The notes below the pieces were generated by a model. That model had not been told where the DNA came from. It worked only from the letters and a program-made list of their open reading frames with translations, and searched no databases. The position numbers were made by a program, and so were the translations under genes. From Hydractinia symbiolongicarpus (lineage: Eukaryota; Cnidaria; Hydrozoa; Anthoathecata; Hydractiniidae), in the NCBI RefSeq assembly GCF_029227915.1, contig NC_079883.1:2108001-2172000 (forward strand): a stretch of 64,000 bases of DNA, given 5' to 3'. This document shows, piece after piece, positions 5,596 to 60,442 of the stretch (position 1 is its first letter; each line of letters starts with the position of its first letter).

Positions 5596-8579
5596 AATTC
5601 ATAGAGTCCAATTGTCTCATTTACAACATTTATAAGGTCAAAGTCCAAAGTCAATTCAATTAGGTCCCGCGGTCAACCGTTTCACTGTTAAAAGCAATTC
5701 AACCTAGCAATATCGGAAATTATCGCTAAATCTATGTTGGTACGAATATGTGACGCAACCGTTGTAACTCAATCGCACTGATACCGTTAGAAAGTCAGTG
5801 AAATGCAGTTTTGGAAACTGTCCCTATTTCTTAAGCGGGAGCCAATGGCTAGGATTAGTCCCGCGGTAAAAAATGCCTTATTGATATAAATTTGTAAATA
5901 AAGACATAACACAGTGCGCAGTGTAACTACTGAGTTCCAGAAATCATGCCAAAGTAAGAAGAATGAAAATTCTTGGAGTTCAATTTTCTCACTTATCACA
6001 TTTATAAGGTCAAAGTGAAAGATCTGCTCAATTTGTTCTCACGGTCAATCGTTTCATTGTTAAATGCGATGCAACCTAGTATTTTCGGGAGAATATCGCT
6101 AAATCTATGTTGGTACGAATATGTGACGCAACCGTTGTAACTCAATCGCACTGATACCGTTAGAAAGTCAATGAAATGTAGTTTTAGAAACTGTCTCTAA
6201 TTCTTCAGTGCGTGCTAATGGCTAGGATTAGTCCCGCAGTAAAAAATGGCTTATTGATATAAGTTTGTAAGTAAAGACATAACACAGCGTCCAGTATAAC
6301 TGCAGAGTTCCAGCATTCATGCCAAAAGTAAGAAGAATGTTAATTCTTAGAGTCCAATTGTCTCATTTACAACATTTATAAGGTCAAAGTCCAAATTCAG
6401 TTCAATTAGGTCCCACGGTCAACCGTCTCACTGTTAAAAGCAATTCAACCTAGCAATATCGGAGACCTATCGCTAAATCTATGTTGGTACGAGTATGTGA
6501 CGCAACCGTTGTAACTCAATCGCACTGATACCGTTAGAAAGTCAATGAAATGTAGTTTTAGAAACTGTCTTTAATTCTTCAGTGCGTGCTAATGGCTAGG
6601 ATTAGTTCCACAGTAAAAAATGGCTTATTGATATAAGTTTGTAAGTAAAGACATAACACAGCGTCCAGTCTAACTGCAGAGTTCCAGCATTCATGCCAAA
6701 GTAAGAAGAATGTTAATTCATAGAGTCCAATCGTCTCATTTACAACATTTATAAGGTCAAAGTCCAAAGTCAATTCAATTAGGTCCCGCGGTCAACCGTT
6801 TCACTGTTAAAAGCAATTCAACCTAGCAATATCGGAAATTATCGCTAAATCTATGTTGGTACGAATATGTGACGCAACCGTTGTAACTCACTCGCACTGA
6901 TACCGTTAGAAAGTCAGTGAAATGCAGTTTTGGAAACTGTCCCTATTTCTTAAGCGGGAGCCAATGGCTAGCATTAGTCCCGCAGTAAAATATGACTTAT
7001 TGATATAAACTTTTAAATAAAGACATAACACGGCGCGCAATGTAACTACTGAGTTCCAGAAATCATGCCAAAGTAAGAAGAATGAAAGTTCTCGGAGTCC
7101 AAGTGTCTCATTTACAACATTTATAAGGTCAAAGTCCAAAGTCAGTTCAATTAGGTCCAACGGTCAACCGTTTCACTGTTAAAAGCAATTCAACCTAGCA
7201 ATATCGGAGAATTATCCCTGAATCTATGTTGGTACGAAAATGTGACGCAACCGTTGTAACTCAAACGGGCTGATACCGTTAGAAAGTCAATAAAATGAAG
7301 TTTTGGAAACTGTCTCTATATCTTCAGCGGTAGTCAATGGCTAGGATTAGTCCCGCAGTAAAATATGACTTATTGCTTTAAACTTGTAAATAAAGACATA
7401 ACACGGCGCGCAGTGTAACTACTGAGTTCCAGAAATCATGCCAAAGTAAGAAGAATGAAAGTTCTCGGAGTCCAATTGTCTCATTTACAACATTTATATA
7501 GTCAAAGTCCAAAGTCAGTTCAGTTAGGTCCAACGGTCAACCGTTTCACTGTTAAAAGCAATTCAACCTAGCAATTTCGGAGAATTATCGCTAAATCTAT
7601 GTTGGTACGAATATGTGACGCAACCGTTGTAACTCAATCGCACTGATACCGTTAGAAAGTCAATGAAATGTAGTTTTAGAAACTGTCTCTAATTCTTCAG
7701 TGCGTGCTAATGGCTAGGATTAGTCCCGCAGTAAAAAATGGCTTATTGATATAAGTTTGTAAGTAAAGACATAACACAGCGTCCAGTATAACTGCAGAGT
7801 TCCAGCATTCATGCCAAAGTAAGAAGAATGTTAATTCTTAGAGTCCAATTGTCTCATTTTCAACATTTATAAGGTCAAAGTCCAAAGTCAGTTCAATTAG
7901 GTCCAACGGTCAACCGTTTCACTGTTAAAAGCAATTCAACCTAGCAATATCGGAGAATTATCGCTAAATCTATGTTGGTACGAATATGTGACGCAACCGT
8001 TGTAACTCAATTGCACTGATACCGTTAGAAAGTCAATGAATTGTAGTTTTAGAAACTGTCTCTAATTCTTCAGTGCGTGCTAATGGCTAGGATTAGTCCC
8101 GCAGTAAAAAATGGCTTATTGATATAAGTTTGTAAGTAAAGAGGTAACACAGCGTCCAGTATAACTGCAGAGTTCCAGCATTCATGCCAAAAGTAGGAAG
8201 AATGTTAATTCTTAGAGTCCAATTGTCTCATTTACAACATTTATAAGGTCAAAGTCCAAATTCAGTTCAATTAGGTCCCACGGTCAACCGTCTCACTGTT
8301 AAAAGCAATTCAACCTAGCAATATCGGAGACCTATCGCTAAATCTATGTTGGTACGAGTATGTGACGCAACCGTTGTAACTCAATCGCACTGATACCGTT
8401 AGAAAGTCAATGAAATGTAGTTTTAGAAACTGTCTCTAATTCTTCAGTGCGTGCTAATGGCTAGGATTAGTCCCACAGTAAAAAATGGCTTATTGATATA
8501 AGTTTGTAAGTAAAGACATAACACAGCGTCCAGTCTAACTGCAGAGTTCCAGCATTCATGCCAAAGTAAGAAGAATGTT
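5596..8579. repeat. Higher-order repeat A, copy 3 (8-mer, 2984 bp)
   Basis: Same order of eight monomer variants as copy 1, including the TCATTTTCAAC monomer near 7855 and the AAAGAGGTAAC variant near 8140. A partial fourth copy starts at 8580 and departs from the pattern near 8861, where small substitutions appear. Confidence 0.85.
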
Positions 8580-34515: not shown

Positions 34516-35692
34516 CGGGCTGGGGGGGTACTGCCCCCCCGGTCATAGTATTCTTGAAGAAACCCGGAATGAAAAGGGTTATGATGTCTCGTGTTTACTA
34601 GGTTTCGCAATAAAAAGTATGTAATGAACCTAAAGGTTTTATCAACTAAAAACCCTTCACTTCTGCACAGATTTTTTCTTGAAAAGATGTATTCTTATCT
34701 ATATTTATATACTATTTGGAAAGTATTCTTTTGTTAGGGTTAGGGTTTTTGTTACCAATATTATTTCAATTGACATTTGTTTGAAATGCGTTACTCCTAA
34801 TCTCCTTAATATCTGCAAATGACAATGTACGGTAATCTTAAAAGTGTTTGAGATTAATTATTTAAAAAACATTTAACTACACTAATGAATTTGAAGAGAT
34901 TTTTAAGACTTCTTTTTGGTCCAAAAAATGTTGCTGCTCATCATCAGTCCGTCACAGAACAACAATGAGAGGCGTTGTTATTGGTATAATATTCTAAATT
35001 TTCAACTAACATCCGGGTGTAAAAGTTTAACATAGGGATAGGTTTGTTGTAAATCGCGTCGTTACGGTTTCTTAGTTTCTTTACATTGATTTTGTTCCAA
35101 TACAAGAGCCGAAATCACCGGGGAGGAGACTGACTTGATGTTTGGCTTAAATGTAATTACGTGCGTAACAAAACTTAAAATTCGAAAGCACAAATTTTTG
35201 TAAATAAGAACTAGGAAGTTCAGGTTGTGTTTTTTTCACAAAATATACTCTACATATTTGCGTGTGTATGTCAGTAAAGCTTCAACGTTGCCAATTTTTT
35301 ATTTGTTGATGTTCTTACTTCTCTCTATTTCTATTTAATTGAGCAAATAAAGCAAATTGGATTAATAAAACCTCTCTTTATCAACCAAAAGTTAACCTTT
35401 TTCGCCTAAGTTTTCCTCCCTAATTGCCAATATTTTTGTGAAAGGGGACAAAAGTTAGGGTGGATAACAATACAAAATATAGATCATTAAATTTATACAA
35501 TAGATCTTGTCAGCTAATATTTTGATAAGAAGATTTGCTAAATTAAACCAAACTCAAATGTAAAAACAAACTTCAGTCGCTCTCCATCACAGTGCTTGCT
35601 AGCCTTTGATTTGTTAAATAAAAGTTTAAAGATGGGAGCTATATAGCTATAGCTTTGACAAAGCTCTTGATCAAGACTTATGTTTTATTTAG
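34516..35692. other. Intergenic, AT-rich, upstream of the OTU-hAT gene
   Basis: This holds the G/C hairpin at about 34521-34541 and otherwise nothing recognisable. It should contain the upstream exon(s) and the transposon terminus of the next gene, but I could not identify either by eye. Confidence 0.4.
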
Positions 35693-38600
35693 CTCTGAAA
35701 GTACTGGAAATTGCTTGTACAGTTCTGCTTCCATCCTGCTTGTTGGTGACAATTCGTTGGTTGAGGATCTCAGAATTTTAACGTCATTAGAGTTGTTTCT
35801 GTGTTCTGAATATTACAGTAGGCACCCTGTTTTGTTGTCGTTATTTGAAGAACACAAAGGTAAGGTATTTAAATCTGTTGATAGCATTTTGCGAATGGTA
35901 ACATCTTTTGAAGCTCTTGATGCTTCAGGTTCTTCGTGCTCTAATAAGTTGGTAAAAAATGAAGCCATTGGTAACTGTAAAAATCAAAAGTGGTGTAGCT
36001 TACTTTGCATATTTGCTTTGTCGTCAGTGTCATTGGCCAACATTAATACATATTTTCCGGATTGTGGTGACTCAAGGGATAAAATTTTATTTAATTGTAT
36101 AATCAGTCCAAGAAATCCCACTCCTTCTTTAAGGACATTGAAATTTCTATTTTGTTTACAAAGTTTTAATGTTGACTCAAGTATCACCTTTAAGCCTAAT
36201 CATTTTGTTCCCATAATTTTTGTGCCTAACGGTACAAAGCGAAAGTTACCGCACATCACAAAAAAAGAAAAAATGTCTTGTGTGCCTACCAAAAAAATTT
36301 CAGTTCAGTCAAAGCTCAGTTTTTGGACTGATAAATGTAGTGACACTTTAATTTTTCCAAAAGTTATGCCATTAATAAATGTTCATAAACCTGTTGTGTC
36401 AAATCCTTTAACCATCACACCAAGTTTAGACAGCAATAGTCTCATTTTTGAATCCTCACATACAATTTGTCATCCACCTGTCCAATCCCATGTTGCAACA
36501 ACAAGCATTGTCACACAACAGATTTCACAATCAACTGTAATTTCAGAAGCTTGTGCAGTTACAAAAATGCCCTTTCCTACACCATCACCTTGTAGTAACA
36601 TGCCAGACAGTTTATTACCTGTGAATAGATTTGATGTGTCATTGTACCGTGAAAAAATGAGAACTTTGAAAAATGACACTTCAGCAATTCAAGACCTCAT
36701 TAAAAACGTTTTTAAACCAAATAACAATTATGTGTTCCCAAAAACTAAAAGATGCTTTCGTTTTGAATGGTTAAACAAATTTCCTTGGTTGTGTTATTCA
36801 CCAGCAGTTGATGGTGCATATTGTCTTCCGTGTGTTTTATTTGGAGAGAAATTTCCAACCAAAACCAACAAAATTAAAAAACTGTTTTCTGAGTCATTCA
36901 GATATTGGCCAGATGCCAATGCTCATTTCCTCAAGCATAATTCTAGCACTGGACTTCATGCTGATACATCAGCTGTATTTACTAGCTTTATAAGTAATTA
37001 TTTTGGTAAGTCCCAACCAATTGACATTCTTGTTGATAGTAACAGGAGAAAAAAAATTGCTGAAAATAGAAAAAAGCTTGTCCCTATTGTTCAAGCAATA
37101 ATCTATTCTGGTAGGCAGGGCCAGGCATTAAGAGGTCATCGAGATGACACCCAGTATCATGGTGAAGTAGGGGAGTTTTCTTGTGGAAGGGTGGGGAATT
37201 TTGTGGAATTGTTGAATTTTAGGGTGCAAGGTGGAGACACTATTCTTGCTGAGCATTTGAAAAACAGCCCTAAAAATGCAACCTATATCTCCAAAACAAC
37301 ACAAAATGAGTTAATAAGTTGTTGTGGTGAATTTATTTTGGATAAATTAGTTTCTGAGATAAAAAACAATGTGTTTTATTCTATTCTTGCTGATGAAGCC
37401 TCTGATTCATCTCACAAAGAGCAAATGTCTTTAGTCCTGCGTTTTGTGGATGATTCATTTAACATTAGAGAGGAATTCATCCAGTTTATCCATTGTGATG
37501 AAGGACTTTCTGGTAAAGACTTACAGTCTGTTTTATGCAAGTGTTTAGAACATTTGAAGTTGGACATAAAAGATTGTAGGGGTCAAGCATATGACGGTGC
37601 AGGTGCTGTGGCTGGTTATAAAAATGGTCTCTCTGCACGCATTCTTAGTCTTAACAGAAAGGCCATCTATGTTCACTGTAACAGCCACCGTCTAAATTTA
37701 TCTGTGGGAAAATCTTGTACTGTGAGCTTAGTTTCACATGTTATGACTAAAATTAAACACATTACTTATTTTTTTAAATTTTCTGAAAAGCGACATCAAG
37801 CTCTTTTGGATAACATTAAAAAATATTGTCCATTAGCTACTGTCACTAAACTTACAGATGTTTGTCGCACTAGATGGGTTGAAAGAATAACTGGTTTAGA
37901 TACTTTTCAGGAGCTATATATTGCAATTTATGTTACCCTGGAAGAAATGAAGTTAAATTTAGAGATGAAATACAACCATGATACTTCAAAACAAGCAGTT
38001 GGTTTTTTTCATCAAATAGCCAACTTTGAATTTGTTGTCACTCTTGTAATTACAAGAAGTATTTTTGATGTCACTCTGCCTGTGACACAACTGCTTCAAA
38101 ATAAATCTATAGATATAATGGACTCAATAGATTTAATAAAAACTTTACAAAATGTTTTAAGACAGACAAGAAACAACGTCGACCATTTTCATGACTTATG
38201 GTACAAGGAAACTCTTTCTCTGTGTGCAAAGGTTGGTATAGAGGAGGAAAAAAAGAGGACTGTTGGAAGACAAACTAATAGGGATAATCATCCTTTCACC
38301 TGTATGTCTGACTTCTACAAAAAAGCTGTTACTAACCCTCTCTTAGACCACCTTAACAGTGAAATGAAGTCTAGATTTGAACCTATTGCACTTAGTGTAT
38401 ATAACGGCTTATGTATTGTCCCTGCTAAAATGATAAACCTTCTTTCCAATGGTAAGGTTAATTGGAAAGAAAAATTTACATCTTTTTCCTCTTTTTATGA
38501 AGATGATCTTCCTAATGCATTAGCTTTAAGTGGCGAATTAGAACTATGGGAAAGGTACTGGGTAGATTTCAAAGGTACCAGGCCTGAAACAATTGCCCAA

Positions 38601-38861
38601 ACTTTAAAGTCGATTGATTTAAAAGTATTCGTAAATTTAAATGTGGCACTGCGTATCTTAGCCACTATACCTGTCACAACATGTGAGTGTGAGCGCTCTT
38701 TTTCATCCATGAGAAAATTAAAAAGCTATACTCGCACAACTATGGTCTCTGACAGAATTAATGGACTTGCTCTCATGTACATACATAATGAAATAGTGCC
38801 GGATGTGCATCAAGTCATAAATAAGTTTGCTAAAGACAAAAGACGTCTTGAACTTATATAA
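35693..38861 (+). CDS. OTU-like domain fused to a TTF-finger hAT transposase (ZMYM1-like)
   Basis: The open frame (about 1055 codons from here; numbering below starts at 35655) is unbroken. Residues ~15-195 resemble an OTU/vertnin-type fold: GNCLYSSAS with the Cys20 nucleophile position, and NHFVPI near 182-187 as the His strand. Residues ~365-440 form a TTF-type zinc finger (Trp373, Cys380, Cys390, Cys393, His429). A DUF4371/hAT catalytic core follows, with ADEASD (Asp580), AYDGAGAVAG (Asp647), HCNSHRLN (Cys675, His678) and RTRW. The hATC dimerisation end has CECERSFSSM (Glu1013). The Asp-Asp-Glu triad is present, so the cut-and-paste transposase may be active. The frame's first codon is TTG and there is no in-frame ATG before residue 81, but TTATGTTTTATTTAG at 35678-35692 is a good splice acceptor, so an upstream exon is likely. 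AATAAA at 38860 overlaps the stop. It could instead be a domesticated host gene. Confidence 0.85.
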
Positions 38862-56834: not shown

Positions 56835-57100
56835 TTAACCGTCTAAGTTAGATAAAAATAAAAAATAAGAAATTCGGTTTACTGTTCTTATAATAATATA
56901 ATCTACTAGCACTACTTTCTTTAACACTCAAGGTCAAAACTCGAAACAGTCCTGTCTAAAATGCAAAATTTGACAGTCTCTATATAATAAATCTTTGTAA
57001 ACAAAATATTACGATGTTCGCCACTTACAGAAAAATGTAGAAAGTTGAATGTGCAACTAAAATTTTATTACAGCGAATATTGAAGTAAGTTTTTAAACTA

Positions 57101-57297
57101 CAATCCTGGACAAAATATATTGGAACTTTTCACATTTTACATGTTTTTGCCCTGCTCACATCCCCTTCCCCCTATTTCAATGTTGCAAGGTGCCTTATAA
57201 CCAGTCGACAGCCCGGCAACATTGAAATAGGGGGTAAGGGGGCCAAGAAGAGGATTTTCCTCAAAAGTTCCAAATATTTTGTCCGAGATTGTCTGAG
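57101..57297 (+). repeat. Left terminal block of the Rep-carrying transposon
   Basis: CAATCCTGGACAAAATAT begins the block and its near-complement ATATTTTGTCCGAGATTG ends the 191-bp palindrome at 57291. A second inner pair of arms (CCCTATTTCAATGTTGC and GCAACATTGAAATAGGG) surrounds a ~30-nt centre. The block can fold on itself, and it therefore contains an outward-type terminus in both orientations. The six bases after it (TCTGAG) have an inverted partner at the right end. Confidence 0.85.
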
Positions 57298-57435
57298 AGG
57301 AGAATATTGAGAAGACTTAAAATTTTTTGCAACCAAAAATTTTTGCGAAACTTTTTATACTTGAATTACTGTCTTAAATTAACAACATGCTTGTCTTTAT
57401 CGTTATAGTGCGTAAACACACAAAAAATAAAAAAA

Positions 57436-58646
57436 ATGGAGAACAAAAGAAAACCATACAAAAGAATGCCATCATCTCTCTCAACGTACGTAAAATACCT
57501 TCACCAGGAGAGTGGAATTGGTATTGCAGAAATGAAAAGAAGGTATCCAGCCTATTCCAAAACGACATTGTTTAGGCATATGAAGGGTAACGTTGCGGTT
57601 GAGTTTGAGGACCGTCGCCATGGAGACAGGGGCAGGCCAAGGAAAGTTTGCGACAGGGATGAAAAATCGATACTGCGCAGCTTGACACAACTTCGCAATA
57701 CTTTTGGCACCTTTTCATCGCAGGATATTCAGACGGCTAGTGGCTCTACTCATTTGAGCAACCGTACTGTTAGGCGGGTGTTAAAGAAACACAAATATGG
57801 TTTTTATCAGTGCAGGAAGAAAGGTATTCTTACCAAAGAGGATTTAACGAAACGCCTAAAATTTGCCAAAAAATGTAAAAAATTGGCTCCAAATTTTTGG
57901 ACAGACAGTAAGTTATTAAGGTTAATTATCTTGTGTTGTGTTGAGTTGTTTTATACATGCCTTGCTAGTTGATTCAACTTATTGAAACTTAAAATTTTGT
58001 TGTGCGCATCATGATATACCTGTGGGTAATTTTAGTGATATCTTTCTACCTTGATGGAACTGGCTGGGTGCATAAAACAAATTCATGCAAGGCAGCAAAA
58101 ACAACAAGGACACGGATGTGGCGGAAAAGAGGTGAAGGTTTAAGCAGAGAGTGTACGGCGAAAGGAAGAAAGGAGGGCAGTGGCGGTAGGATGGCTAAGT
58201 TCATGGTAGCGATTGCGTATGGAAAAGGTGTAATTGAGTGTCATCAATATGAAGGTGGTCTCAGTGGTGAAAAGTGTGCACAGTTTCTCAGATATCGCTT
58301 TCCAGTAATGTTTGAACGTGGAAATAACCAGCGCGGGAGACTGTTCCTTCAAGATGGAGACCCTTTACAAAACTCTCGTTTGTCGCGTGATGCTATGGAT
58401 TCCTTCGGGTGCAGACTTTTTAAGATTCCACCTCGTTCACCCGACCTTAACCCCATTGAAAACGTCTTTCATTTGGTTGGTATCCAGCTTAAGAAACAGG
58501 CCTTGGAAAGAAGACTGGAGAAAGAAACCTATGTGCAATTTTGTCGTCGGGTAAAGAAAACACTTTTAAATTATCCTTCCAGAATTATTGACAAAACAAT
58601 AGTTTTGAAAGTCAAAAAAGTTTGTGTACAACATAATTCGTCTTAG
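57436..58646 (+). CDS. Tc1/mariner DD34E transposase, two exons, ~360 aa
   Basis: Exon 1 is 57436-57907 and exon 2 is 58036-58646. Splicing removes an in-frame stop and joins the frames. The N-terminal half is a bipartite helix-turn-helix DNA-binding region (residues ~10-55 and ~75-120) separated by the AT-hook-like GRPRK (66-70). The catalytic core has FWTD (Asp157), FLQDGDP (Asp264) and SPDLNPIEN (Glu299), with 34 residues between the second Asp and Glu, the Tc1 arrangement. It would cut at the element's ends and insert at TA. The length is that of a complete Tc1/mariner transposase. No stop or frameshift is seen within exons, so it may be functional. AATAAA lies at 58688-58693, 42 nt after the stop. 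ATG at 57436 is in an AAAAAATGG context and is the first in frame. Confidence 0.85.
57908..58035 (+). other. Intron (128 bp) in the transposase gene
   Basis: The donor is ACA|GTAAGTT at 57907/57908 and the acceptor AATTTTAG|TG at 58035/58036. Joining gives an uninterrupted reading frame straight into the conserved ISFYLDGTGW segment. The intron interrupts the gene one base after the codon of the first catalytic aspartate (Asp157). Confidence 0.8.
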
Positions 58647-58687
58647 GTAGAATGCCTCTGTGATAGGAGAACAGAACCAAAGTAACA

Positions 58688-58693
58688 ATAAAT
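58688..58693 (+). terminator. AATAAA polyadenylation signal of the transposase gene
   Basis: It lies in the 96-bp gap between the two convergent genes, 42 nt after the transposase stop. No equally clear signal is seen for the Rep gene in the opposite direction. Confidence 0.5.
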
Positions 58694-58742
58694 ACGTGGT
58701 TGTTATTCGTCACAACCCATAAACACAAGTTCGGCGAAACAT

Positions 58743-60062
58743 CTACTGCAAGCTGCCAAATCTCTCTGTAGCGATGTTGGTATTTGCAAATAGGTGAAAC
58801 GTTCGCCACCTTGCCTCCATCATTGCGTCTTCCCCGTCTTTGTTGTTACTTTTGCCAGAATATTTAATTGTGGAAATGCTTGTCGCAAATATCGGTATGT
58901 CATTTTGTATGCAAATGTCTTTGGAGTAGTGTGTCTTTGGTGTTGAGAGATGGACAAGTTGTCCTTCTAGCAGGTTGAGGAATTCTTGCCATGGAATCAT
59001 GTCCTGGTTCAAGCGCAAGTCATTTAGGAAAATAAGTCCTTTGTTTTCGACACCAACAAAGGCGTATTTACTGCTTGAAGGATTTGAAAATGTGTCGTAA
59101 ATCTGTGTCAACGGGGTCAACAGAAATTTCTTGCCACAATTTGCTGGACCGATTAGCAGTAAGTTTCGATTTTTGCTTCGACCGTACTCCAGCAAAATGC
59201 GGACTGCTTCTGCAAAGACATATGCATTAATCTTGTTGTTTTTCAAAATCTCTTTAGCCATACATAACCAGTCATTGTTTACGCAGGATGCTATGCATGT
59301 GTTTTTGACACTGGCAGTGAGTCGCTCCATGCTGTTTTGCAATTGTCTGTGTAGTGTTTCGGGTGATTTAGTCATTTTCCATGTTTTATTGATAAGTTCC
59401 CGATAAACGTGCTCTGGTGTGTTAGCAATAAAGCCTTTTAGATCATTTGATCCATCTGAGGCTTGTTCCTCTGCCAAAGCTAAAAGTTCAGTTTCACTTT
59501 TGATGTTGCATGTGCGAATGATATTCATAACCGCTAATTTTGACAATTTTTGATTCTTTTTGCCTTTGCTTTTGCAAATACCGCCTTTATCTACAGGTGT
59601 AGATTCTCTACGCTTTCTCATCAAACTTTTGCTTGCACAGGATGTTGTCGGTGATGCCACCAGGTTAAGGTTTGGGTGTCCTACACTATGATAAACTTCA
59701 GGGTCCTCTTTTGTCACATATCTGTAAGCACTCATTTAGTTTTGGTGGCCATCACTAAAGTGAACGCTAATCCCAAAGTTTGCGATTAGGTACTGTTTCG
59801 CCCCACACCAGCGCTTGTTTCCGCTTAGCTTTAAACACATGTGGAAATGGTAACCGGTCTCTGCATGCAGCTCCTTACTAACTGCCCACTGCACAGGTTG
59901 CACTGAGCTTTCTTTCCTAGGATCGAATGCCTCAATAACTACCTCCCCGAACCTTTCTCTGTCAGCACATTTCTTTTCATCAACTTGACTGTAAGTAATC
60001 AAATATACTTTTCGTATTGCTCTGATGGCTAAACCGACTTCAAAGTCCTTGTCAATACTCAT
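58743..60062 (-). pseudogene. Rep-like protein: HUH endonuclease plus SF3 helicase, split by one stop
   Basis: One frame of 440 codons is cut by a TAA at 59736-59738, directly followed by an ATG. The first part (60062-59736, 108 aa) has VYLITYSQ (motif I, ~19-26) and YHFHMCLKL (motif II, HUH His72/His74). The second part (59735-58743, 330 aa) has YVTK (motif III YxxK, nicking Tyr6 and Lys9), GPANCGKK (Walker A, 196-203), GLIFLNDL (Walker B, 233-240), PIFATS (motif C, 281-286) and MMEARWRTF (arginine motif, 305-313). This is the layout of replication initiators of small circular ssDNA replicons, which nick DNA at an origin and unwind it. The stop separates motif II from motif III, and the Walker A Ser/Thr position is Lys203, so this copy is probably inactive. 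The family appears, from memory, multicopy in cnidarians. Confidence 0.75.
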
Positions 60063-60150
60063 TTTTATCTTGTTTTTTCTAAATTACAAGATCAGCACTT
60101 TTAGCACAGGTCTTTTGGTCTTCTTTTTGTTCCTTTACGTGCACAGTTAT

Positions 60151-60179
60151 GTAAATCACAGCTATGTGCTGTGATTTAC
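60151..60179. promoter_or_regulatory. Perfect 11-bp stem-loop upstream of the Rep-like gene; candidate replication origin
   Basis: GTAAATCACAG (60151-60161), 7-nt loop CTATGTG, CTGTGATTTAC (60169-60179). It lies 89 bp before the Rep start codon, between the gene and the right terminal block. Small Rep-encoding replicons keep their nicking site in such a hairpin near the rep 5' end. The loop does not contain the classical TAGTATTAC nonamer, so the role is inferred from position and perfection only. A transcriptional operator-type role is an alternative. Confidence 0.5.
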
Positions 60180-60243
60180 GGCCTAAATTTGAGTAGAAAA
60201 TCTTTGGTTGGCCAATTATCACAATTTCCTGTTCATTTTTTTG

Positions 60244-60440
60244 CTCAGACAATCCTGGACAAAATATATCGGAACTTTTCACATTTTACATGTTTTTGCC
60301 CTGTTCACATCCCCTTCCCCCTATTTCAATGTTGCAAGGTGCCTTATAACCAGTCGGCAGCCCGACAACATTGAAATAGGGGGTAAGGGGGCCAAGAAGA
60401 GGATTTTCCTCAAAAGTTCCAAATATTTTGTCCGGGATTG
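60244..60440 (-). repeat. Right terminal block of the Rep-carrying transposon
   Basis: Same 191-bp palindromic block as the left end, in the same (direct) orientation as judged by the asymmetric part between the arms (CACATTTTACATGTTTTTGC). It ends TCCGGGATTG at 60440, followed by TA. Confidence 0.85.
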
Positions 60441-60442
60441 TA

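What the first reader, a model, noticed from the sequence alone, without database searches (positions are those of the whole stretch)
57101..60440. A Tc1/mariner transposon that also encodes a rolling-circle-type Rep (HUH + SF3 helicase)
Seen: one 3340-bp insertion with TA on both sides contains a complete spliced DD34E transposase and, on the other strand, a gene with HUH, YxxK, Walker A/B, motif C and arginine motifs. Known: Tc1/mariner elements need only a transposase, while HUH-SF3 Reps drive replication of circular ssDNA viruses and plasmids. Inference: the element may excise and integrate by transposase and amplify extrachromosomally through Rep, a hybrid life cycle. I recall Rep-like genes as multicopy orphans in cnidarian genomes; this locus would give them a host element. 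I cannot exclude that the pairing has already been described.
Basis: partly seen in the sequence, partly recalled or inferred. Interest (0 to 1): 0.9.

Follow-up and report, generated by a model that had tools for sequence, protein, structure and literature searches.

The report
Transposon carrying its own replication gene
In one animal genome we find a clan of jumping DNA elements that carry both a cut-and-paste enzyme and a virus-like DNA replication enzyme between hairpin-forming ends, which suggests that they may copy themselves as circles or chains before jumping.

Summary
It has TA on both sides, a Tc1/mariner DD34E transposase (tnp) and, on the other strand, an HUH+SF3 Rep. Rep has an in-frame stop and a lost C-terminal frame; tnp lost its 3' end to a deletion.

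The pairing is not chance: in the window's own genome 30 of 36 Rep loci with matches of at least 900 bp have tnp within 2.5 kb, all 30 tail-to-tail. Six families with Reps 45-68% different share the layout.

Elements end in 161-204-bp palindromic blocks in DIRECT orientation. Blocks are 37-59% alike between families, yet left and right are identical in two elements, and in an older one differ by side-private changes, as LTRs do. Some loci are head-to-tail arrays with one block per junction.

Best model: Rep replicates a one-block circle or concatemer; transposase inserts block-core-block at TA. Pairing and anatomy are shown; replication is inferred. Main rival: unequal crossing-over plus gene conversion. 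Ten library searches listed nothing that describes the pairing; nearest are RepE1 'cressviruses' of sea anemones.

The parts
57099..57100 (.). TA target duplication, left
57101..57291 (+). left terminal block: palindrome, ends CAATCC.../...GATTG, inner C-rich/G-rich stem
57162..57240 (.). inner long stem-loop of the left block (25-nt arms, 92% complementary)
   Evidence: I5
57292..57297 (+). inner left motif TCTGAG; would pair with CTCAGA (60244-60249) across a one-block junction
57436..57907 (+). tnp exon 1 (HTH_Tnp_Tc3_2); intron 57908-58035 inferred
   Evidence: splice inferred
58036..58646 (+). tnp exon 2 (DDE_3, DD34E); natural C-terminus lost at ~58600 by an internal deletion
58743..59735 (-). 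Rep SF3 piece (YxxK, Walker A/B, motif C; labels recalled); C-terminal tail out of frame
59739..60062 (-). Rep HUH piece, cut from the SF3 piece by an in-frame stop
60244..60249 (+). inner right motif CTCAGA
60250..60440 (+). right terminal block, direct repeat of the left one (97%)
60311..60389 (.). inner stem-loop of the right block
   Evidence: I8
60441..60442 (.). TA target duplication, right

Best explanation
This is a damaged copy of what is most likely a self-replicating DNA transposon. The full element is TA-[block]-tnp>-<Rep-[block]-TA, ~3.7-4.1 kb. SHOWN: a Tc1/mariner-type DD34E transposase and a parvovirus/E1-like HUH+SF3 Rep are an old, tail-to-tail gene pair. The block is one palindrome present at both ends in direct orientation; its two ends keep matching each other while the sequence changes from family to family. 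Left and right blocks are identical in two unrelated elements. Head-to-tail multimers with a single block per junction sit in the genome, one with exact transposon ends and TA on both sides. INFERRED: the block is both the transposase's end pair and Rep's origin. A circle with one block is replicated by Rep (nick at the hairpin, SF3 unwinding) into copies or concatemers. Transposase cuts the left end of one block and the right end of the next and inserts block-core-block at TA, which regenerates identical ends. Cutting both ends of one block would give the solo blocks seen at TA sites.
For: Pairing: 30 of 36 Rep loci (match span >=900 bp) and 34 of 55 of all Rep loci have tnp within 2.5 kb, every one convergent; tnp neighbourhoods cover ~0.11% of the genome (coordinates, count). 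Age: Reps of six families in this genome differ by 45-68%. Rep/tnp distances correlate over 11 pairs, one per family (r 0.43, p 0.00075; five of these pairs rest on equal contig length). Other samples: five contig lengths above 3 kb occur in both hit lists (76 Rep and 81 tnp lengths; expected 0.80, P 0.001); five such pairs plus this family give Mantel r 0.66, 2 of 720 permutations. Blocks: palindromes in 6 of 6 families folded (z -5.6 to -11.2; 15-19 of the first 20 bases match the far end), 37-59% alike between families. Left vs right: 204/204 (C6), 194/194 (C14), 98.1% (C4, inside an array), 96.1% (C2), 97.4% (window). In C2 the 8 left/right differences are private to one side, and one further change is shared by both blocks. 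Arrays: C15, 12 units of ~3978 bp, 11 one-block junctions without TA, left end TA|block; C12, 2752-bp Rep-deleted unit, TA|block at one end and block|TA at the other; C4, at least two units. CTCAGA/TCTGAG-type inner edges pair across a one-block junction (window 6 nt, C15 5, C12:17.4 5). Fold: best PDB matches AAV2 Rep68, then Rep40 and papillomavirus E1 (TM to target up to ~0.65 for the helicase part).
Against: No circle or single-stranded form has been seen. Unequal crossing-over between the direct blocks would also make one-block arrays, and gene conversion could equalise blocks. In the C1 element left and right differ at 8-9 positions, and C1b's right block is closer to two solo blocks (3 and 4 differences) than to its own left one (8); the window left block is as close to C7's left block (5) as to its own right one (5). 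Inner-edge pairing is weak or absent in C6, C14 and C4 (3, 1 and 1 contiguous nt). The right blocks of C12:17.4 and C4 are not followed by TA, and in 4 of 12 Rep loci scanned no complete block was found by the end motifs (one of them, C7:4.28, has a right block cut short). Rep-deleted units also form arrays, so Rep is not needed in cis. Rep/tnp distance correlation within this genome alone is not significant (6 families, p 0.066). Several of the counted loci are segmental duplicates of one insertion (C1a/C1b; the two C2 loci), so 30 of 36 is not 30 independent events. Many copies have stops in one or both genes. The C15 right end is not a block end.
Confidence: 0.6

Rival explanations
1. The pair is real, but Rep is an accessory of cut-and-paste transposition (nicking or unwinding the hairpin ends, or helping gap repair). 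Arrays come from unequal crossing-over between the direct blocks, and equal blocks from gene conversion.
For: Direct 161-204-bp repeats are plausible substrates; Rep-deleted units also form arrays; C1 blocks are not homogenised; a 3804-bp host tandem duplication including flank shows that ordinary duplication occurs here.
Against: SF3 Reps are replicative helicases (established for parvoviruses and papillomaviruses; recalled). Identical blocks in two unrelated families and side-private changes in C2 need frequent conversion. Both ends of the C12 array are exact transposon ends with TA, which crossing-over also permits.
Confidence: 0.3
2. It is an endogenised small DNA virus of the RepE1 type that uses a captured Tc1/mariner transposase as its integrase; a capsid gene is lost or unrecognised.
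For: Rep folds like AAV Rep68 and E1; RepE1 cressviruses are reported from sea anemones, with high-copy integrations (PMC11071296 section 12); 34 of the 85 Rep-hit contigs between 1 and 8 kb are 3.5-4.75 kb long.
Against: Between the two stop codons of the C1b copy lie only ~490 bp; no further frame of 150 aa or more lies within the C7, C1a or C1b copies except one that enters from the flank; two Rep scans of IMG/VR and searches of phage and plasmid records gave no relative. No capsid search as such was run.
Confidence: 0.08
3. Chance co-insertion or a composite of two MITEs around unrelated genes.
For: Solo blocks of the window family exist (five full ones, four with TA on both sides).
Against: Same gene orientation at 30 of 36 loci and the same block type in divergent families; the sequences just inside the blocks are identical at three insertions of the window family.
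Confidence: 0.02

Closest known systems
IS630/Tc1/mariner DD34E transposons
   Same: DD34E transposase with HTH_Tnp_Tc3_2 and DDE_3, TA target, inverted ends
   Different: second conserved gene (Rep); ends are whole palindromic blocks repeated directly; one-block head-to-tail arrays
RepE1 'cressviruses' of sea anemones (preprint PMC11071296; section 12 and found passages seen)
   Same: E1-like HUH-SF3 Rep, cnidarian hosts, high-copy genomic copies
   Different: that text reports capsid candidates; 'transposase' occurs 0 times in its main text; whether the Reps are the same family was not tested, as no sequences were at hand
Parvoviruses/AAV (Rep68 + terminal hairpins; recalled)
   Same: Rep fold; hairpin-forming ends
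   Different: no capsid gene recognised; blocks are direct repeats at a TA target with a DDE transposase
Helitrons and Replitrons (HUH transposons; recalled)
   Same: HUH nuclease in a eukaryotic transposon
   Different: those move by the HUH protein itself; here a DDE transposase and TA duplication, and an SF3 helicase
Filamentous phages of Spiroplasma with IS30-type transposases (recalled, not checked)
   Same: ssDNA-type replicon joined to a DDE transposase
   Different: bacterial phage, unrelated proteins
Polintons/Mavericks (recalled)
   Same: concept of a self-replicating transposon
   Different: protein-primed DNA polymerase and retroviral-type integrase, much larger

Membership tests
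Tc1/mariner | DD34E/D transposase with Tc1-type HTH | tested here: met
   (HTH_Tnp_Tc3_2 and DDE_3 above cut-off); DD34E counted by eye on the sequences
Tc1/mariner | TA target duplication | tested here: met
   TA both sides in the window, C1a/C1b and four of five solo blocks and in C6, C14 and C2; not after the right blocks of C12:17.4 and C4; C7's right end is damaged
Tc1/mariner | terminal inverted repeats | tested here: met
   (I2); block ends
Tc1/mariner | transposase as only gene (usual, recalled) | tested here: not met
   Rep near 34 of 62 tnp loci; 28 without detected Rep
HUH-SF3 Rep replicon (CRESS/parvovirus) | HUH + Tyr + SF3 protein | tested here: met
   the window pieces themselves score below Pfam cut-offs
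HUH-SF3 Rep replicon (CRESS/parvovirus) | capsid gene | tested here: inconclusive
   frames of 150 aa or more listed for C7, C1a, C1b only; no capsid search was run
HUH-SF3 Rep replicon (CRESS/parvovirus) | free circular or hairpin-ended DNA form | not testable with these tools
   needs reads or wet work
Helitron | no target duplication, 5'-TC...CTRR-3', SF1 helicase (recalled) | tested here: not met
   TA duplication and CAATCC ends; SF3 fold
MITE composite | blocks independent of the core | tested here: not met
   same block type at the ends of other families, although solo blocks of the window family exist

The most novel reading that the evidence does not exclude
A new class of eukaryotic mobile element, the replicon-transposon: a Tc1/mariner transposase inserts and excises, while a parvovirus/E1-like Rep copies a one-block circle as concatemers from the same palindrome that serves as transposon ends. 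Such elements could be a source or relic of RepE1 viruses in cnidarians.
Probability: 0.55. Interest if true: 0.93.

Novelty: new variant of a known kind. Interest (0 to 1): 0.86.

Why it matters
Cut-and-paste transposons are thought to depend on the host's replication to gain copies. An element that owns a replication protein and keeps LTR-like identical ends would be a way to raise copy number without reverse transcription, and it gives orphan Rep-like genes of coral and anemone genomes a home. It also links eukaryotic DNA transposons directly with the Rep lineage of parvo-, papilloma- and CRESS-type viruses, and makes head-to-tail arrays a testable product.

Tried and rejected
Chance pairing: rejected. 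Composite of two MITEs: rejected as origin of the family, although solo blocks exist. Rolling-hairpin flip/flop: considered because C13's left block is inverted, but in the window, C7, C1 and E-group copies the orientation is constant, so not favoured. C7's second Rep half first looked like an element array; it is a 3804-bp host tandem duplication with flank. The C13 array with 2735-bp spacing carries a tnp fragment, and no block was found in the 10 kb fetched. Scans that gave no Rep relative: viral contigs, genome contigs, plasmids, phages. Literature: ten searches, of which I saw the listings; none of the listed titles and abstract starts describes the pairing. Searches used the phrase 'Tc1 mariner', which may miss the form with a slash. 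Opened: PMC11071296 (found passages, section 12), PMC6431247 and PMC6668415 (found passages only). The 'all' Mantel value is not used, because some rows share no columns. The three contig-length coincidences under 3 kb (1260, 1802, 2175) are not relied on; with them the Mantel test gives r 0.44, p 0.002.
Full report
What is in the window. The insertion at 57101-60440 is flanked by TA on both sides and ends in two 191-bp blocks (57101-57291, 60250-60440) that are 97% identical and in DIRECT orientation. Each block is by itself a complete palindrome: as single-stranded DNA the left one folds at -51.1 kcal/mol, z -10. Because of that, the whole element also has inverted outer ends. Between the blocks lie a transposase gene on the + strand (Pfam HTH_Tnp_Tc3_2 and DDE_3 above cut-off) and a Rep-like gene on the - strand. 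The window's Rep pieces score below Pfam cut-offs for E1, NS1 and REP_ORF2-G2P, but the intact relative P0001 reaches two of them (PPV_E1_C 30.6 against 26.5 bits, Parvo_NS1 21.6 against 20). The model of P0001 (mean pLDDT 85) matches AAV2 Rep68 best, then AAV2 Rep40 and papillomavirus E1. Motif names (HUH, YxxK, Walker, motif C) are recalled labels placed on the alignment.

The copy is broken. Compared with the C7, C1a and C1b copies, 449-468 bp are missing at ~58600, and the transposase loses its conserved C-terminus. Rep has an in-frame stop between the HUH and the YxxK/SF3 pieces, its C-terminal tail is out of frame, and its Walker A differs. Open Rep frames exist elsewhere in the genome, and at least one locus has both genes without stops over the matched range.

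The genome. The window lies at C9:2108001-2172000 of a 481-Mb, 76-contig assembly. Among the few named relatives of Rep are Acropora millepora and Porites evermanni, so I take the family to be at home in cnidarians (inference). The window's own family has a 3793-bp copy on C7, whose right block is cut short, and one insertion on C1 that was later duplicated with its flanks (C1a, C1b); the sequences just inside the blocks are identical in these three insertions. A further group on C1 shares one left flank and is a duplicated, truncated insertion.

The pair is conserved. A search of the genome with P0001 gave 102 Rep matches (171 candidates, 94 scored) and with P0126 gave 120 transposase matches (291 candidates, 112 scored), so counts are lower bounds. 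After merging, 30 of 36 Rep loci with a match span of at least 900 bp have a transposase within 2.5 kb, and all 30 are tail-to-tail; over all sizes it is 34 of 55. The remaining 6 and 21 have none detected. In reverse, 34 of 62 transposase loci have a Rep near, 28 have none detected. Transposase neighbourhoods cover about 0.11% of the genome. Some loci are segmental duplicates of one insertion (C1a/C1b; the two C2 loci), so the loci are not all independent. Among transposase loci without Rep are the C12 array, whose unit is a Rep-deleted derivative with short matches to both Rep ends left, and truncated copies of the window family. In the 30 loci fetched around the best Rep matches the pair can be read directly: 25 show transposase homology within the fetched flanks; L111, L131-L134 and L140 do not, but a transposase lies just beyond L140's flank.

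Old association. Six families in this genome have Reps differing by 45-68% and transposases by 45-56% (longest stop-free fragments). Over 11 pairs, one per family, Rep and transposase distances correlate (r 0.43, p 0.00075); for the six families of this genome alone r is 0.46 with p 0.066. In the protein collection, five contig lengths above 3 kb appear in both the Rep list and the transposase lists (3771, 3799, 3916, 15355, 15997; 76 and 81 lengths, expected 0.80, P 0.001; lengths; the query was itself a member of one such pair). That these are shared contigs is inference; I could not fetch them. Their distances together with this family's (Rep of the C7 copy, transposase exon 2 of the window) give Mantel r 0.66, 2 of 720 permutations. 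Of 85 Rep-hit contigs between 1 and 8 kb, 34 are 3.5-4.75 kb long, the size of one element; a second hump lies below 2.5 kb.

The blocks. I scanned 12 Rep loci for a right-hand block by its end motifs; 8 show one (L114, L116, L126, L128, L130, L135, L137, L138), 4 do not (L112, whose right end is cut short, L115, L131, L140). Five of the eight are followed by TA; L130 and L135 are not, and L116 is an array junction. Left blocks were found complete in C6, C14, C4 and both C2 loci, only 40 bases of it in C12:17.4, and not in C7:18.8. In the six families folded, all blocks are palindromes (z -5.6 to -11.2) with a C-rich/G-rich inner stem, and their two ends match at 15-19 of 20 bases although the end sequence differs between families. 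Between families blocks are only 37-59% identical. Within an element they are 204/204 identical in C6 and 194/194 in C14, both with TA on both sides; 98.1% in C4 (part of an array), 96.1% and 95.6% in the two C2 duplicates, 97.4% in the window. In the C2 element the eight differences are private to one side, and one further change is shared by both blocks against C6 and C7:18.8. This is how LTRs behave. Against it, C1's two blocks differ at 8-9 positions and C1b's right one is nearest to solo blocks, and the window's left block is as near to C7's as to its own right one.

Arrays. On C15, 12 units of about 3978 bp stand head to tail; 11 junctions read core-CAGA-[block]-TCTGAG-core with no TA. 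The array begins with TA|block and ends inside the last unit, 5' of Rep. On C12 a 2752-bp Rep-deleted unit of the same family forms an array with 7 transposase matches, 8 units by arithmetic from its two ends if one unit has lost ~563 bp; one unit and both ends were read: TA|block on one side and block|TA on the other. Matches with the same 2752-bp spacing lie on C1:26.35-26.38 Mb (not read). On C4 at least two units share a block. The inner edges pair with each other across a one-block junction in the window family, C15 and C12:17.4 (6, 5 and 5 nt), but not convincingly in C6, C14 or C4.

How it may work. Shown: gene pair, block anatomy, equal blocks in two families, one-block arrays with transposon ends. 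Established knowledge (recalled): DD34E enzymes insert at TA; HUH-SF3 Reps nick hairpins and unwind DNA for rolling-circle or rolling-hairpin replication. Inference: a circle with one block is the replicating form; concatemers are cut by transposase at the left end of one block and the right end of another, which makes elements with equal ends, multimeric insertions (arrays) and, if one block is cut at both ends, solo blocks (five full solo blocks of the window family, four with TA on both sides). The simpler rival is cut-and-paste plus unequal crossing-over and conversion, with Rep as helper; the Rep-deleted arrays fit both if Rep can act in trans.

Known or new. Ten searches of the open library listed nothing that describes this pairing (two of them used a form that may miss 'Tc1/mariner' with a slash). 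The closest is the report of E1-like Reps in sea-anemone 'cressviruses' with high-copy genomic copies (PMC11071296, section 12), whose main text holds the word transposase 0 times. Repbase-type collections and subscription papers were not searched. As the transposase and target are those of Tc1/mariner, I file it as a new variant of a known kind; if the replicating circle is shown, it becomes a new class.

Noticed in passing
window 1-29176: 29-kb tandem satellite, period 373 bp, ~78 copies
   Followed up: no
window 35655-38861: 1068-aa frame with DUF4371 and a hAT dimerisation domain, a hAT-type transposase relative
   Followed up: no
G000 C13:8873745-8920508 (part in L109): repeated matches with 2735-bp spacing that carry a 3' fragment of this transposase; no block seen in the fetched part
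   Followed up: partly
L091 575-8178 (C7): recent 3804-bp host tandem duplication that copies the Rep half of the element with its flank
   Followed up: yes
L091 ~5922-5940 (C7): right end of the C7 copy is cut short and followed by a repeat of ~14 bp of the left flank, as after a faulty gap repair
   Followed up: no
L103 1349-1537 (C13): left block inverted relative to its core
   Followed up: partly
protein P0236: transposase named as from a Nitrosomonadaceae MAG; probably a eukaryotic contaminant contig (inference)
   Followed up: no
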